From Ruminococcus bromii (GTDB taxonomy: Bacteria > Bacillota > Clostridia > Oscillospirales > Acutalibacteraceae): a DNA stretch of 64,000 nucleotides. Positions within the stretch are counted from its first letter, which is position 1, and each line of letters begins with the position of its first letter. A program made the position numbers and the translations under genes. The stretch spans positions 1 through 64,000 of the forward strand of contig NZ_NNBY01000041.1 of NCBI RefSeq assembly GCF_002834235.1. Reading direction: 5' to 3'. Positions 54,765-59,542 of the stretch are shown one piece after another. The notes below the pieces were generated by a model. It was not told the origin of the DNA. It made no database searches and worked only from the letters and a program-made list of their open reading frames with translations.

Positions 54765-55223
54765 TTACTTATTGTTTTCTTCCTTTTTTTCTTTGAAAGC
54801 GAAGAAACGCTGTCCGATGTAGTTGAATGCAACAAATAGGCAAGCGCCTACTATCATTGAGAAGTTTCCTGCAAACTTTTCAACACTCCAGCCGAACATT
54901 GTCCAGCTGTTTGCCGTACAGAGCATACTGATGAGCGGAATTGCAATTCCGTAGGCAAGTCCGTAGCATATTGCAATATTGAGTGCAAATTTAACAATTG
55001 GTTTCCAGCCCTTGTCCTTGTTTTTGAATGTGAAGTATTTGTTGAGAAAATAGCTTAAAATACTGCCGAGAATGTAGCCGATAAGCGATGAAACCCATTC
55101 ATTCCAGCCACAGAGGTTAAAAAACAGAAATTGAAGTCCCATACCCACAACCGTGTTTAAAATTCCGACAAGTATAAACTTCCAAAATTTAATGTCAAAA
55201 AACTGCTTTATAAAATTACCCAT
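54765..55223 (-). CDS. GtrA-family membrane protein
   Basis: A 152-residue protein with four transmembrane helices and the family pattern KFILVGILNTVVGMG, SYFLNKYFTFK and FNYIGQRFFAFK. GtrA proteins are thought to flip undecaprenyl-phosphate-linked sugars across the membrane. Its ATG overlaps the stop of the glycosyltransferase gene (TAATG), so the two are translated together. It probably works with that enzyme and the YfhO-like protein encoded next door on the other strand. Confidence 0.88.
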   Translation of the reverse strand: MGNFIKQFFDIKFWKFILVGILNTVVGMGLQFLFFNLCGWNEWVSSLIGYILGSILSYFLNKYFTFKNKDKGWKPIVKFALNIAICYGLAYGIAIPLISMLCTANSWTMFGWSVEKFAGNFSMIVGACLFVAFNYIGQRFFAFKEKKEENNK

Positions 55224-56197
55224 TAACCGTTAATCTCCTTATCATCTTTTTCTTCGTTATCTTCATCTTCAAAATTGGAGAATTTTGTAATGTAAATAGG
55301 TCTGTCCTTGGCTTCCATATAAATTTTTCCTATGTATTCGCCAAGAATACCGATTGACATTTCGGTGATTCCGCCCATAAAGAGGATTGCGCACAGCGTG
55401 GTGACATAACCGGGTGTGGTAATTCCGAGAAAAAGCGTTTGAATCAGCGTTATTATAATGTATATGAGCGAAATTACGAAGATGATAAATCCCATAACAG
55501 CCGTGAATCTGAGCGGTGCAACCGAAAAGCTTGTGATTCCCTCAATTGCATATTTGAACAGACTTGAGAATTTCCATGTTGTCTGACCGAGCTGACGGTC
55601 AACTGTTTTGTAGGCAATCCATTTTGTGTTGAAGCCAACCCATGAGAAAATGCCCTTTGAAAATCTTTGAACTTCGCTGAGTTCAAGGATTGAGTCAACC
55701 ATCTGACGGCTCATCATACGGAAGTCCATTGCGCCGTAGGGCATTTTTACATCTGTAAGCCTATTTGAAAGCTTGAAGAACAGTTTTGAAAAAATTCCTC
55801 TGAACTTGCTTTCGCCCTCACGGTCGGCACGCTTTGTCGCACAGCAGTCGTAACCCTCATGTTCAACAGCCTGAATCATCTGAGGAAACAACTGCGGAGG
55901 ATGCTGAAGGTCGGCGTCCATAACAACAACATAGTCAGCCGTTGTATGCTTGAGTCCGGCATACATTGCCGCCTCTTTGCCAAAATTTCGTGAGAACGAA
56001 ATATACTTGATATTGTTAAAAGTTTTCGCAAGCTTTTTCATGATAAGGTAGGTCCTGTCCTTACTGCCGTCATTTACAAGTATGTATCTGAAAGAATATT
56101 CGGGCAGAGAGTTGATAACCTTGTTGGTTTCAAGCACAAAATGCTCAAGTCCAGCTTCTTCATTATAGCAGGGAACAACTAAGTCTATGGTTTTCAT
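55223..56197 (-). CDS. GT2 polyprenyl-phosphate glycosyltransferase (GtrB/CsbB-like)
   Basis: A 324-residue GT-A glycosyltransferase with DLVVPCYNEEAGL, VNDGSKDRT, the metal-binding DADLQHPP and QRFSKGIFSWVGF of the GtrB/DPM1-like group, followed by two transmembrane helices (about 228-290) and an acidic tail. It would link a sugar to undecaprenyl phosphate on the inner face of the membrane. AAAGGTGAT precedes the ATG. It is first in the two-gene unit with GtrA. Confidence 0.9.
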   Translation of the reverse strand: MKTIDLVVPCYNEEAGLEHFVLETNKVINSLPEYSFRYILVNDGSKDRTYLIMKKLAKTFNNIKYISFSRNFGKEAAMYAGLKHTTADYVVVMDADLQHPPQLFPQMIQAVEHEGYDCCATKRADREGESKFRGIFSKLFFKLSNRLTDVKMPYGAMDFRMMSRQMVDSILELSEVQRFSKGIFSWVGFNTKWIAYKTVDRQLGQTTWKFSSLFKYAIEGITSFSVAPLRFTAVMGFIIFVISLIYIIITLIQTLFLGITTPGYVTTLCAILFMGGITEMSIGILGEYIGKIYMEAKDRPIYITKFSNFEDEDNEEKDDKEING

Positions 56198-56303
56198 TTT
56201 TTACATCACCTTTATAAAGTTAAACTCACCGCATAGGGGTGAGAACAGTAGCAATTGTTTTTTTATCTGAATGATAATCTGCTTTGTCTGTAAATAGTTG
56301 TAT

Positions 56304-56637
56304 TTAGATTTAAATCGGAGCAAGCAATGCTTTGCTCGCAAGGAGCAGAGCTTGCGACAGATTGCAATCAGTGCGAAGGAGCGAAAGCTCCGTGGAATTT
56401 AGAGGGAGTGAAACTCACACTAAATTCAAAGATATTTTCAAAACCCCGAAAGAGGCAGATACATCCGCACTTAGATTTAAATCGGAGCAAGCGATGCTTT
56501 GCTCGCAAGGAGCAGAGCTTGCGACAGATTGCAATCAGTGCGAAGGAGCGAAAGCTCCGTGGAATTTAGAGGGAGTGAAACTCACACTAAATTCCAAAGA
56601 TAATCTCCGACCTCAAAGAGGTGGAGATTATCCGCAC
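56304..56637. repeat. Two tandem copies of a 167-bp hairpin-rich unit
   Basis: Copy 1 is 56304-56470 and copy 2 is 56471-56637; about the first 120 bases are almost identical (one A/G difference near 56326/56493), while the last part differs. Each copy holds several short self-complementary segments (GAGCAA..TTGCTC, GGAGC-GAAA-GCTCC, TTTAG..CTAAA). A third copy starts at 56638 (TTAGATT) but diverges at once. Frames across it encode only repeat-like peptides and are not genes. With leader sequences it fills the 606-base gap 56198-56803. Confidence 0.8.
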
Positions 56638-56803
56638 TTAGATTATAACAAAGCTAACGCAAAAAGTCTATTTTTTTTAAGATTTTTATGTTTTTTTATT
56701 TACATCACACACGAAAAGCGTTAAAATAGAATGGATTACTTGTACCCGATTGCATTTTTGTGCATATCGGAAAACAATTACAAAATATTTCGGAGGTCAA
56801 ATT

Positions 56804-59542
56804 ATGCCCGCTGTAAAGAAAAGGAAGAAGGCTGAGCCTGTTACGCTGAATAACAAGAGCAACGGCAAAGGCTTTTTCTCAAAAAACATGTTTATCGTTT
56901 TGGCTTTTGTCATACCGTTTGTGCTTATGACAGCCGCTTTCGGAGTTATGAAGGTTTCGCCGTTCGGTGACAATCAGATTCTCGTAACCGACCTGTGGCA
57001 TCAGTATTATCCGTTCCTTGCGGATATGCAGGAAAAACTTAAACACGGCGAATCGCTGTTCTGGTCATGGACGCAGGGCGGAGGTGTAAACTACTTTGCA
57101 CTTATGTCATACTACCTTATGAGCCCGCTGAATTTTCTTACGGTATTTTTGCCGAGTGAATGGCTGAGAGAATTTTTGATGTTCTCTGTTGTAATCAAGG
57201 TTGCATGTGCAAGTATGTTTATGGCAATCTTCTTACGCAGTCTTTTTAAGAAGAATGATTTTTCTCTTGTGATTTTCGGATGCAGTTTCGGCTTTTGTGC
57301 ATTCTTTATGGGCTACTATTGGAACACAATCTGGCTTGATACGGTTTGTATCACACCGCTTGTTGCTCTTGGCACAGTAAAGCTCTTCACAGAGGGCAAG
57401 TTCAGACTTTACATAGTTTCGCTTGCACTTTCACTTTTGACTAACTATTATATAGGGTTGTTCGCCTGCATTTTTGTACTGTTGTCATTTATTGCATACA
57501 ACATTGTAAAATGGGACGGCATCAAAAAGTTTGCAACAAATCTTCTTCGCACAGGCATCTACTCATTGATTGCAATCGGACTTACTGCGTTTTTCCTGTT
57601 GCCGGCATTCTTCGGTCTGCAAAACACAAACGCATCGGGGGCAACTTTCCCGACAACCTTTGCAATCAATATAGGTTCGACAAATGACCTTATGGGTGTG
57701 CTTGAGGCAATCAGAAAGATTCTTTCCAATTTCATAACATTTGCCGCTCCTGCAATTAAAGAGGCTGACGCATTGCCTAACATTGCCTGCGGTACACTTT
57801 CTCTTGTACTCGGAATTCTTTTCTTCACAAGCAAGAAAATTTCGCTCAAAGAGAAAATCGTTGACGGTTGCCTTATCGGTTTTATGATTATCAGCTGTAT
57901 CATCAGACAGCTTGACTACATCTGGCACGGTTTCCACTTTACAAATATGATTCCGTACCGTTTCAGCTATCTTATCAGCTTTGTACTTGTTGTTATGGCA
58001 TTCAGAGCTTTTATGCTCCTGGAATCAAGCTCTTGCTGGGATGTTATTCTTGCCGCACTTTTTGTTGCACTTGTTATCATCTTCGGTATCGGCACACAGG
58101 AGACTTATGCGCTTGTCGGCACGGCAGTTATTGCGGCTGTAATCTGCGTTCTGCTTTTCCTCTATACAAAGAGAATTGTTCCGAAACAGGTTCTTTTGAT
58201 TGTATTCGGCGTAATCATAATAGGCGAGAGTGCCGCCGCAGGTTATATCGGTGTTAAGACAACGACTGTAACGGGTACTTACGATTATCCGAGAGGCGAG
58301 GAAAGTACTGCACAGGTAATTGACTATATGGACAGCCTTGAAAGCAACACAACCGAAATGTGGAGAGCGGAGATGACATCAACTCAGACGCTTAACGATG
58401 CGGCTCTCAACCACTACAACGGACTTTCGATGTTCAACTCAATGGCTAATGTTGATATGACCGTGCTGTTTGAAAACTTTGGCATGATGGGTTGGAAGAG
58501 CGGTAACCGCTACACCTATGCCGAGGGTTCACCGGTTACAAACCTCTTTATGAATCTTAAATATCTTATTGCCCGTGACAATATCTATATGAACACCTAT
58601 GATCTTACAGAGGTTTACGGTGTCGGTAATGTAAAGCTTTTGCAGAACAATCACTATCTGCCGATGGGCTTTATGACAAACTCCGCACTTGCAAGCTGGC
58701 AGGTTGATGAAAACGAAGATCAATTCAATCCGTTTGACAAACAGAATGAATTTTTCAAACTTGCAACAGGCATTAAGGGTGATGTTTACACTCCGCTTGA
58801 TGTTGTTTCACAGGGACACACAGACTACAATCAGTTCCCCGTAAATAAGACAGGTTACGGACGATATTCATTCAGCTGTACCGATACAACGGTTACTCCG
58901 CATGTAAAGTGGAATTACGAAGCGCCTAAGGACGGCTTGTATCTTATGTATGCGGATATTTCGGGCGGTGACGATGTTACCGTTATGATTAACGATGTTG
59001 CTCAGAGCAAGACCTACGGTATGGGCAGAAGCTACATTGCCTGCATCGGTCAATGCAAAAAGGGTGACAAGATTTCCGTTTATTCAAATCTCCAGCAGGG
59101 ACAGTCGGGTTCTGCAATGGTATTTGTTGATGTTCTGAATCAGGATGTCTTTGAAGAAGGTTACAATAAGCTTTCAAAGAGCGTAATGACAACAACAAAG
59201 CTTACAGGCAGTTCTATGGAGGGAACAATCAATGCACAGGAAAACGGATTGTTCTACACTTCTGTTCCGTATGAAGAAGGCTGGAAGGCATATGTTGACG
59301 GCAAGGAGGTAACAATTACTCCTGTCGGCAACGCACTCGTTGCATTCAATCTTGACAAGGGCGAGCATACAATCAAGCTTGAGTATTATCCAAAGGGATT
59401 TGCAATAGGCTTGACCGTGACAATCATATGTGCCGCAACCTTTGCGTTCCTCTGTGTATGGACATATATCATCAAAAAACGCAGAAAAAAGAAAGGCGAT
59501 ATTTCTGAAAATCCCGAAGAAGTTCAGATTAACGCTGAATAA
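56804..59542 (+). CDS. YfhO-family membrane glycosyltransferase
   Basis: A 912-residue protein with a basic N-terminus, about 13 transmembrane helices in the first two thirds, a large extracellular domain (about 500-870) and a last helix before a Lys-rich tail. VTDLWHQYYPFL and the SFWSWTQGGGVNYFA segment are YfhO hallmarks. In B. subtilis and relatives YfhO transfers GlcNAc from the lipid carrier made by CsbB to lipoteichoic acid. GGAGGT precedes the ATG. It lies back to back with the GtrA/GT2 pair, completing a three-component system. Confidence 0.88.
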   Translation: MPAVKKRKKAEPVTLNNKSNGKGFFSKNMFIVLAFVIPFVLMTAAFGVMKVSPFGDNQILVTDLWHQYYPFLADMQEKLKHGESLFWSWTQGGGVNYFALMSYYLMSPLNFLTVFLPSEWLREFLMFSVVIKVACASMFMAIFLRSLFKKNDFSLVIFGCSFGFCAFFMGYYWNTIWLDTVCITPLVALGTVKLFTEGKFRLYIVSLALSLLTNYYIGLFACIFVLLSFIAYNIVKWDGIKKFATNLLRTGIYSLIAIGLTAFFLLPAFFGLQNTNASGATFPTTFAINIGSTNDLMGVLEAIRKILSNFITFAAPAIKEADALPNIACGTLSLVLGILFFTSKKISLKEKIVDGCLIGFMIISCIIRQLDYIWHGFHFTNMIPYRFSYLISFVLVVMAFRAFMLLESSSCWDVILAALFVALVIIFGIGTQETYALVGTAVIAAVICVLLFLYTKRIVPKQVLLIVFGVIIIGESAAAGYIGVKTTTVTGTYDYPRGEESTAQVIDYMDSLESNTTEMWRAEMTSTQTLNDAALNHYNGLSMFNSMANVDMTVLFENFGMMGWKSGNRYTYAEGSPVTNLFMNLKYLIARDNIYMNTYDLTEVYGVGNVKLLQNNHYLPMGFMTNSALASWQVDENEDQFNPFDKQNEFFKLATGIKGDVYTPLDVVSQGHTDYNQFPVNKTGYGRYSFSCTDTTVTPHVKWNYEAPKDGLYLMYADISGGDDVTVMINDVAQSKTYGMGRSYIACIGQCKKGDKISVYSNLQQGQSGSAMVFVDVLNQDVFEEGYNKLSKSVMTTTKLTGSSMEGTINAQENGLFYTSVPYEEGWKAYVDGKEVTITPVGNALVAFNLDKGEHTIKLEYYPKGFAIGLTVTIICAATFAFLCVWTYIIKKRRKKKGDISENPEEVQINAE

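What the first reader, a model, noticed from the sequence alone, without database searches (positions are those of the whole stretch)
56304..56637. Tandem 167-bp hairpin-rich unit in front of yfhO
Two head-to-tail copies of exactly 167 bp, nearly identical for about 120 bp and then different at the 3' part. In copy 2 the divergent part forms a strong hairpin (GATAATCTCC with GGAGATTATC). Each copy has at least four short stem-loops, including a GAAA tetraloop closed by GGAGC/GCTCC. Conserved stems beside a variable hairpin look more like a structured RNA or protein-binding repeat than a decayed gene. Its place between two divergent parts of a glycosylation system raises the possibility of phase or dosage effects through copy-number change.
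Basis: seen in the sequence. Interest (0 to 1): 0.62.

Follow-up and report, generated by a model that had tools for sequence, protein, structure and literature searches.

The report
Mobile hairpin DNA inside a promoter
The tandem repeat is two copies of a small, protein-less mobile DNA element, found in gut bacteria related to Ruminococcus bromii, that inserts directly behind the letters TATAA; here it sits inside the promoter of a sugar-transfer gene, which still reads as a promoter.

Summary
Observation confirmed: two head-to-tail 167-bp units, 2 mismatches in the first 127 nt and 24 in the last 40. They belong to a dispersed family: 10 matches here, 6-115 in eight relatives, and 21 of 391 class-wide genomes, own included. 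Stems covary strongly (29 of 34 pairs changed on both sides; 0 of 500 shuffles), but G·T and A·C mismatches are balanced in an unfitted fold (117:130), so the hairpins look like DNA structure rather than RNA. Empty sites show insertion exactly 3' of TATAA, without target duplication beyond an unresolved 2 nt. This resembles non-autonomous IS200/IS605-type transposition, but no matching transposase was found and Y1 genes do not track the element. Here the element does not lead into yfhO: it split the -10 box (TATAA|T) of the divergent GT2 glycosyltransferase promoter, shared by relatives lacking the element. The box still reads TATAAT; GT2 would gain a leader of about 440 nt. Phase or dosage control has no support here. 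A new family of a known kind, with an unusual promoter-sparing insertion.

The parts
56476..56642 (-). Element copy A (first in the direction of the GT2 gene), 167 nt, from TCTAAG to TTTAAA
   Evidence: CM match 56476-56647(-), 160 bits, including the 5-nt TATAA target; ends placed by empty sites of other copies
56309..56475 (-). Element copy B, 167 nt, abutting copy A through TTTAAA|TCTAAG
   Evidence: CM match 56309-56475(-), 129 bits; TRF
56642..56647 (-). -10 box TATAAT of the GT2 promoter; insertion point placed between its 5th and 6th base (56643/56642) by analogy with the other copies
   Evidence: same promoter without the element in G003, G002, G152 (no CM match there); promoter scan
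56665..56670 (-). -35 box TAGACT, 17 nt from the -10 box
   Evidence: TRGACT in the three empty relatives
56599..56632 (.). Hairpin A of copy A (variable hairpin, GATAATCTCC/GGAGATTATC)
   Evidence: fold; sequence
56560..56596 (.). Hairpin B of copy A (TGGAATTTAGAGGGAGT/ACTCACACTAAATTCCA)
   Evidence: inverted repeat I2
56545..56558 (.). Hairpin C of copy A (GGAGC-GAAA-GCTCC)
   Evidence: conserved in the 22 aligned copies
56537..56638 (.). Outer stem P1 (56537-56542 with 56633-56638) closing hairpins A, B and C
   Evidence: fold; helix 2: 6 of 6 pairs with changes on both sides, 92% of cells paired
56476..56536 (.). Domain II: GATTGCAATC centre and the long hairpin before the TTTAAA end; the main part left in the ~70-nt short forms
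   Evidence: helix 5; short forms
56300..56308 (-). TCTAAATAC after copy B; may be native or the first bases of a lost third unit
   Evidence: read by eye; resemblance only
55223..56197 (-). GT2 glycosyltransferase gene whose promoter was entered (Glycos_transf_2, followed by GtrA at 54765-55223)
   Evidence: Pfam
56699..56727 (+). Promoter-like TTTACA-17-TAAAAT for yfhO, outside the element
   Evidence: consensus scan only
56750..59542 (+). yfhO (YfhO membrane protein; likely true start ATG 56804)
   Evidence: Pfam E = 3.6e-156; start by eye

Best explanation
The repeat is two tandem copies of a non-autonomous mobile DNA element of 167 nt in this window (mostly 150-180 nt elsewhere), built of DNA hairpins and with no recognisable gene. 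Shown: the family is dispersed; copies insert exactly 3' of (T)ATAA, without terminal inverted repeats and without a target duplication beyond an unresolvable 2 nt; the stems keep pairing through compensating changes; and here the element stands in the -10 box of the GT2 promoter (TATAA|T), which still reads TATAAT because the element starts with T. Inferred: it is part of the GT2 leader; it moves as a folded single strand, excised and joined by a trans-acting HUH/Y1-type transposase of the IS200/IS605 kind that uses TATAA as left (target) site and TTTAAA as right site; tandem copies arise when the right end of one unit is joined to the left end of another; most copies are selfish, and copies in -10 boxes persist because they leave the promoter readable and only lengthen the leader.
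For: Dispersed and patchy: (at E up to 0.1, at most 150 candidates scored a genome: 10 matches here; 6, 15, 18, 115, 7, 7, 52 and 6 in eight relatives); own genome included, (16 of 161 same-genus genomes; 12 of 398 in the family; 21 of 391 in the class). Empty sites (11 comparisons of seven insertions): clean for L099/L199, L094/L198 and L095/L202 (also L217, L218); short or gapped beyond the junction for L101/L226 and L102/L225; diverged for L096/L213 and L081/L219; uninformative for L102/L212 and L081/L205, where the relative has the element too. Apart from a fixed TAA at both ends, no direct repeat of 4 nt or more is shared in more than 8% of 102 copies. Tandem junctions TTTAAA|CCTAAC in L109 and TTTAAA|TCTAAG in the window. 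Covariation. Strand balance of mismatches. GT2 promoter without the element in G003, G002 and G152 (no CM match there); same at lepA (element in G067 and G032; not in G000, G034, G149, G071, G099) and at the L101 locus (G000, not G032). 2218 of 2966 TATAA sites lie in ORFs, but of 148 sites tested with the copy taken out, 9 had an open frame of 40 or more codons on both sides, and I take one (L138, antisense) as a gene body and one (L123) as possible.
Against: No transposase carrying these ends was found. The left part of the IS200 copies of this genome is different (their right end was not delimited). Y1 genes were not found in G120 and G099, although G120 has many near-identical copies, and are no commoner in genomes with the element (9 of 16) than without (71 of 145). 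The proposed internal guide (TTGCAATC) pairs with the element start only somewhat better than shuffles (p = 0.002), and the commonest combination, CCT with TGC (19 of 97), breaks it. Orientation along the GC-skew leading strand is only 78:41, with some loci counted twice, weaker than strict lagging-strand targeting would suggest. Promoters are not hit clearly more often than other intergenic TATAA sites (8 of 85 vs 37 of 744, p = 0.12). The model used to find copies contains TATAA, which favours copies that keep it. In G544 the avoidance of genes is not clear.
Confidence: 0.66

Rival explanations
1. A structured non-coding or cis-regulatory RNA (leader or sRNA) that spread with its promoter; the minus strand is transcribed from TATAAT and the hairpins act in the mRNA leader.
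For: TATAAT lies at the 5' edge and a strong -35 stands 17 nt upstream in 8 of 106 flanks, against 0 to 3 at each of the 44 other spacings. The downstream gene is co-oriented in 53 of 69 copies of the first set. Strong covariation. In the CM-fitted alignment G·T exceeds A·C 187:102, though four of 33 pairs hold 72 of the 187 and the model leans to G·U.
Against: An unfitted strand-symmetric fold gives G·T 117 to A·C 130 in 73 representatives, and the opposite strand folds better in 47 of 73. No Rfam match at gathering score. Neighbour genes look unrelated (lepA, a BipA-like and a V-ATPase-like gene by eye, glycosyltransferase). In the second set the downstream gene is co-oriented only 27:17. 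Empty sites show insertion into promoters that exist without it.
Confidence: 0.15
2. A non-autonomous relative of another transposon class with little or no target duplication, such as IS110/IS1111 (bridge RNA, 2-nt core; the unresolved AA could be the core) or IS607 (serine recombinase).
For: The junction cannot exclude a 1-2 nt duplication (A/AA). Y1 genes do not track the element. The element length is near that of bridge RNAs (recalled).
Against: Target conservation is one-sided (TATAA); to the right no base exceeds .49; bridge-RNA targets are longer and two-sided (recalled). Hairpins lie toward both ends. IS110 and IS607 proteins were not searched.
Confidence: 0.15
3. A REP/REPIN-like family mobilised by RAYT proteins (a Y1 subtype, so partly contained in the first explanation).
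For: Proteins that look RAYT-like to me (recalled motif, no family model) occur in genomes with the element: G067, G163, G164, G165, G166, G168, G173, and a truncated one in G034. REPINs are hairpin, extragenic and non-autonomous (PMC3116915, passages).
Against: No element near the Y1/RAYT genes: 0 matches in 21 loci reaching about 1.5 kb. REPs are 20-40 bp (PMC3733652, abstract in listing). The genome with most matches, G002, shows only a Y1 fragment.
Confidence: 0.12

Closest known systems
PATE (palindrome-associated transposable elements; ends-only IS200/IS605 derivatives), PMC7290912 (passages)
   Same: No terminal inverted repeats, no target duplication, insertion 3' of a fixed 4-5-nt sequence, hairpins toward the ends, no gene
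   Different: No IS with the same ends found here; extra hairpins A-C closed by P1; up to 115 matches in one genome; TATAA site that coincides with -10 boxes and stop codons
REP/REPIN with RAYT, PMC3116915 and PMC3733652 (passages)
   Same: Mostly extragenic, palindromic, dispersed, sometimes tandem
   Different: Much longer unit, no RAYT neighbour found, insertion 3' of TATAA
Correia elements (CREE/NEMIS), PMC2649163 (start of abstract seen)
   Same: Small mobile repeats with promoter sequence at their ends
   Different: CREE have inverted repeats; this element has none at its ends and here keeps an existing promoter rather than making a new one
BOX and RUP repeats of pneumococcus, PMC3049150 (start of abstract seen)
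   Same: Small interspersed repeats in a Firmicute
   Different: No sequence relation tested; different hosts

Membership tests
PATE / non-autonomous IS200/IS605 element | No terminal inverted repeats | tested here: met
   Ends CCTAAG/TCTAAG... and ...CGATTTAAA are not inverted repeats (read)
PATE / non-autonomous IS200/IS605 element | No target-site duplication | tested here: met
   Empty sites; up to 2 nt (AA) cannot be resolved
PATE / non-autonomous IS200/IS605 element | Insertion 3' of a specific tetra- or pentanucleotide | tested here: met
   TATAA: T .78, A .92, T .96, A .98, A .97 in 102 copies (the search model contains these letters); also in empty sites
PATE / non-autonomous IS200/IS605 element | Hairpins near both ends | tested here: met
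   P1 with hairpins A-C at the left, domain II at the right
PATE / non-autonomous IS200/IS605 element | Shares its ends with a Y1 transposon of the host | tested here: not met
   IS200 left part differs in this genome; 1 weak CM match (24.5 bits) in 19 Y1 loci; no Y1 found in G120 and G099. Gaps in draft genomes leave room
PATE / non-autonomous IS200/IS605 element | Internal guide pairs with the cleavage site | tested here: inconclusive
   Combined p = 0.002 on 53 distinct combinations, but CCT/TGC (19 of 97) breaks it
PATE / non-autonomous IS200/IS605 element | Strand-biased insertion relative to replication | tested here: inconclusive
   78:41 by GC skew, some loci counted twice
REP/REPIN | Copies beside a RAYT gene | tested here: not met
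   0 matches in 21 loci around Y1/RAYT genes
REP/REPIN | Unit of 20-40 bp with a GTAG-type tag | tested here: not met
   Full unit mostly 150-180 nt, short form about 70 nt; the tag itself was not searched
Structured RNA family | Compensating changes in stems | tested here: met
   29 of 34 pairs, 0 of 500 shuffles, on an alignment fitted to the model
Structured RNA family | G-U preferred over A-C on one strand | tested here: not met
   117:130 in an unfitted fold; against this, 187:102 in a model-fitted alignment
Structured RNA family | Match to a curated family | tested here: not met
   No match of the unit at gathering score
Structured RNA family | Stable transcript | not testable with these tools
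   No RNA-seq
Correia element | Terminal inverted repeats | tested here: not met
   As first row

The most novel reading that the evidence does not exclude
A promoter-tolerated single-strand mobile element: it recognises TATAA on exposed non-template DNA, for instance in the open promoter complex, inserts inside the -10 hexamer, restores the sixth base with its own first base, and so converts promoters into promoters with a long structured leader, without loss of the gene. In some lineages the first base has become T, which keeps TATAAT.
Probability: 0.12. Interest if true: 0.8.

Novelty: new variant of a known kind. Interest (0 to 1): 0.5.

Why it matters
It points to an abundant mobile element, undescribed as far as my searches reach, of R. 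bromii, a major starch degrader of the human gut (recalled), and of relatives across the class. It shows a clean way for a mobile element to enter a promoter and leave it readable, adding a hairpin-rich stretch in front of genes such as lepA and a GT2 glycosyltransferase. It also warns that strong covariation alone does not prove a functional RNA: mobile DNA hairpins can give the same signal, and a count of G·T against A·C helps to separate the two.

Tried and rejected
Rfam at gathering and permissive thresholds: only three tRNAs in the window at gathering score, nine sub-threshold rows around the unit. Viral contigs: 0 matches with two exact patterns; phage and plasmid records: no match. So no sign of a phage or plasmid vector in these collections.

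Autonomous partner: Y1; TnpB domain (2 of 9 genomes, one over the cut-off, in G002; no CM match in either locus); long elements with both ends in held DNA (five loose pairs, not followed further). RAYT neighbourhood: nothing.

Promoter targeting as such: rejected as a general claim. Elements meet a consensus -35 in 8 of 85 cases against 37 of 744 other intergenic TATAA sites (p = 0.12). Elements reading TATAAT do so in 8 of 26, others in 0 of 59, but this is partly a species effect: within G002 it is 5 of 17 vs 0 of 12, p = 0.06.

Intron or translational bypass: considered because one gene of G544 holds three sense copies whose flanks join into one open frame. I hold it unlikely as the general reading, since 75% of TATAA sites lie in ORFs yet few copies do (which misses insertions within 40 codons of a gene end). 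In G544 itself 9 of 15 complete copies had some frame across the join at looser limits, three of them long (L311, L316, L323, all antisense), and I did not resolve these.

Empty sites: a first alignment with the element left in was mostly unreadable and was replaced; it did show short forms at two sites (L206, L203).

Rows dropped before counts: one search used 70 of the 83 matches (those of 50 bits or more not cut off by a contig end), 1 of them at a locus edge; 4 of the 70 have the flank of another copy, as orthologues. Searches used 69 of the 80 matches; one search then left out 13 of them, in 12 loci of genomes already in the first set, and 12 edge cases. Searches used 130 distinct elements of 50 bits or more without N, or subsets with usable flanks (106, 102). 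One search left out the pair of columns 3/211.

Literature: searches listed nothing that describes this family; the library is open-licence PMC only. PMC7290912, PMC3733652 and PMC3116915 were seen as passages; PMC2649163 and PMC3049150 as the start of the abstract in a listing.

Full report
OBSERVATION. The tandem is real: period 167, 56304-56644, with 2 mismatches in positions 1-127 and 24 in 128-167. Both copies fold far better than shuffles (z -4.5 and -9.5). The two copies differ almost only in one hairpin, which is well formed in copy 2 and degenerate in copy 1.

A DISPERSED FAMILY. DNA search found homologues in 9 of 150 same-genus genomes, own included, mostly at several places each. 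A covariance model R1 was built from 22 copies. With stricter filters and own genome included: 16 of 161 genomes of the genus, 12 of 398 of the family, 21 of 391 drawn from the class. A pattern scan of named genomes gave 71 stretches, among them Ruminococcus bromii YE282 and ATCC 27255, Ructibacterium gallinarum and many MAGs. Viral contigs, phage and plasmid records gave none.

ANATOMY. Read on the minus strand of the window, a unit is TATAA | (C/T)CTAAG - stem P1 closing hairpins A, B and C - GATTGCAATC centre - long hairpin - CGATTTAAA. Short forms of about 70 nt keep mainly the last part. In 83 aligned copies, 29 of 34 consensus pairs show changes on both sides; 89% of cells are paired; no shuffle of 500 reached any of the five measures. 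The alignment was fitted to the model, which favours it, but the slid controls fall to 38-46% paired.

DNA OR RNA. If one strand were selected as RNA, G·T pairs should exceed A·C mismatches on that strand. A strand-symmetric fold of 73 representatives (at most 85% identical) gave 117 G·T and 130 A·C; 19 tRNAs gave 15 and 6, and shuffled elements 170 and 180. The tRNA control is small. In the model-fitted alignment the count is 187 to 102, a result against my reading; the model favours G·U, and the four pairs with most G·T hold 72 of the 187. Energy folding favours the opposite strand in 47 of 73. I conclude that the stems are more likely kept as DNA hairpins, or by a DNA-level process such as template switching, than as a strand-specific RNA.

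INSERTION. Joined flanks of nine insertions were searched in eight genomes, and seven insertions compared with relatives in 11 alignments. Clean empty sites...AACATATAA|ATGTGAC... (L099 against L199)...AATATATWA|GGTAATT... (L094 against L198)...GATATAA|TCTTCAA... (L095 against L202, with the same join in L217 and L218, whose target reads GACATTA). Shorter or gapped matches: L101/L226 and L102/L225. L096/L213 and L081/L219 are compatible but diverged; L102/L212 and L081/L205 say nothing, as the relative has the element too. So the inserted piece is (C/T)CTAAG...TTTAAA, placed directly 3' of TATAA. The two-letter overlap AA cannot be assigned. In 102 copies the five target letters stand at .78.92.96.98 and .97 (the search model contains them), no flanking base exceeds .51, and apart from the fixed TAA no direct repeat of 4 nt or more is shared in more than 8%. 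Tandem junctions read TTTAAA|CCTAAC (L109) and TTTAAA|TCTAAG (window): the right end takes the place of the TATAA site, as in a joined right-left end.

WHERE COPIES LIE. First set: downstream gene co-oriented in 53 of 69 (co/co 31, divergent 22, anti/anti 11, convergent 5; simple ORF calling, 4 of 70 rows are orthologues of others). Second set, other genomes: 27 of 44 (21, 6, 6, 11). Common to both is orientation along the local genes (52 co/co against 17 anti/anti). A small part of this follows from the site: in 5 of 85 copies the TAA of the target is an in-frame stop codon. TATAA sites lie in ORFs in 2218 of 2966 cases, but few copies lie in gene bodies: of 148 sites tested, 9 had an open frame of 40 or more codons on both sides of the join, of which I accept L138 and perhaps L123.

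THE WINDOW LOCUS. Of ten loci with a yfhO match that I examined, four have a GT2-like gene divergent upstream (G120, G002, G152, G003), and none of these four has a CM match. In G003, G002 and G152 the GT2 promoter reads TAGACT, TGGACT and TGGACT, then 17 nt, then TATAAT; the window reads TAGACT, 17 nt, TATAAT, and the sixth base of TATAAT is now the first base of the element (scan: 10 of 12 matches, TG before). G120 has a different promoter region. G034 has other sequence upstream, and the remaining four showed no GT2-like gene in the stretch held. The same habit is seen at lepA (element in G067 and G032; none in G000, G034, G149, G071, G099) and at the L101 locus (G000, not G032); at lepA of G034 the empty site reads TATAATCTAAGTA, so a deletion scar is possible there. 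Over all copies, a strong -35 at exactly 17 nt occurs in 8 of 106 flanks against 0-3 at the 44 other spacings, not clearly more than random use of intergenic TATAA sites would give (37 of 744). So the element need not seek promoters; it seeks TATAA, and -10 boxes contain it. The likely effect here is a leader of about 440 nt (56635 to 56198) with up to eight hairpins on the GT2-GtrA mRNA; this is inferred, no transcript data were at hand. The yfhO promoter-like site lies outside (56699-56727).

MECHANISM. Fixed 5-nt site on one side, no inverted ends, no duplication and hairpins toward the ends are the marks of IS200/IS605 transposition (PMC7290912, passages), and an ends-only derivative would be a PATE. 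The missing piece is the enzyme: see evidence against. The internal TTGCAATC could serve as guide; support is weak.

WHAT IS NEW. No description found in the searches named under Tried and rejected. The kind (small, non-autonomous, hairpin, without target duplication) is known; the family, its host range and its promoter-sparing entry appear new.

Noticed in passing
L281 1480-2651 (G544, another genus of the family): Three sense copies of a divergent subfamily break one putative membrane-protein gene at TATAA (Tyr-Asn or Tyr-Lys codons), each bringing a stop; across the three sites the flanks form one 293-codon frame; a fourth copy lies just downstream. Simplest reading: a gene broken three times; splicing or bypass is not excluded.
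   Followed up: partly
window:56431-56470 and 56598-56637: 24 of 26 differences between the two tandem copies fall in the last 40 nt, the variable hairpin; in G544 this hairpin is often replaced by other palindromes, by eye. Hairpin A seems to be swapped or rewritten as a unit.
   Followed up: no
L274-L280 (G281, G379): A 71-nt short form is nested in a longer repeat with shared flanks, so it is carried along by another element.
   Followed up: no
L180, L231, L233-L235, L239, L240, L245, L246: Y1 proteins that look RAYT-like; several contain related 'VGRGLAPAE' stretches that look like repeats inserted in frame.
   Followed up: no
L195 about 300-2450 (G002): A protein with a Cas12f1-like/TnpB zinc domain (497-aa open frame) is followed by a series of related repeats about 65 nt apart (GTTATAACTCACG...GAATTGTGAG), which looks like a CRISPR array.
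   Followed up: partly
window:56225-56243 (-): A terminator-like stem-loop in the putative GT2 leader downstream of the element (1 found, 0.5 expected); possible attenuator or chance.
   Followed up: no
L187 and six other loci of G000: Seven Y1 matches with identical scores, an IS200-type element, in the window's genome.
   Followed up: partly
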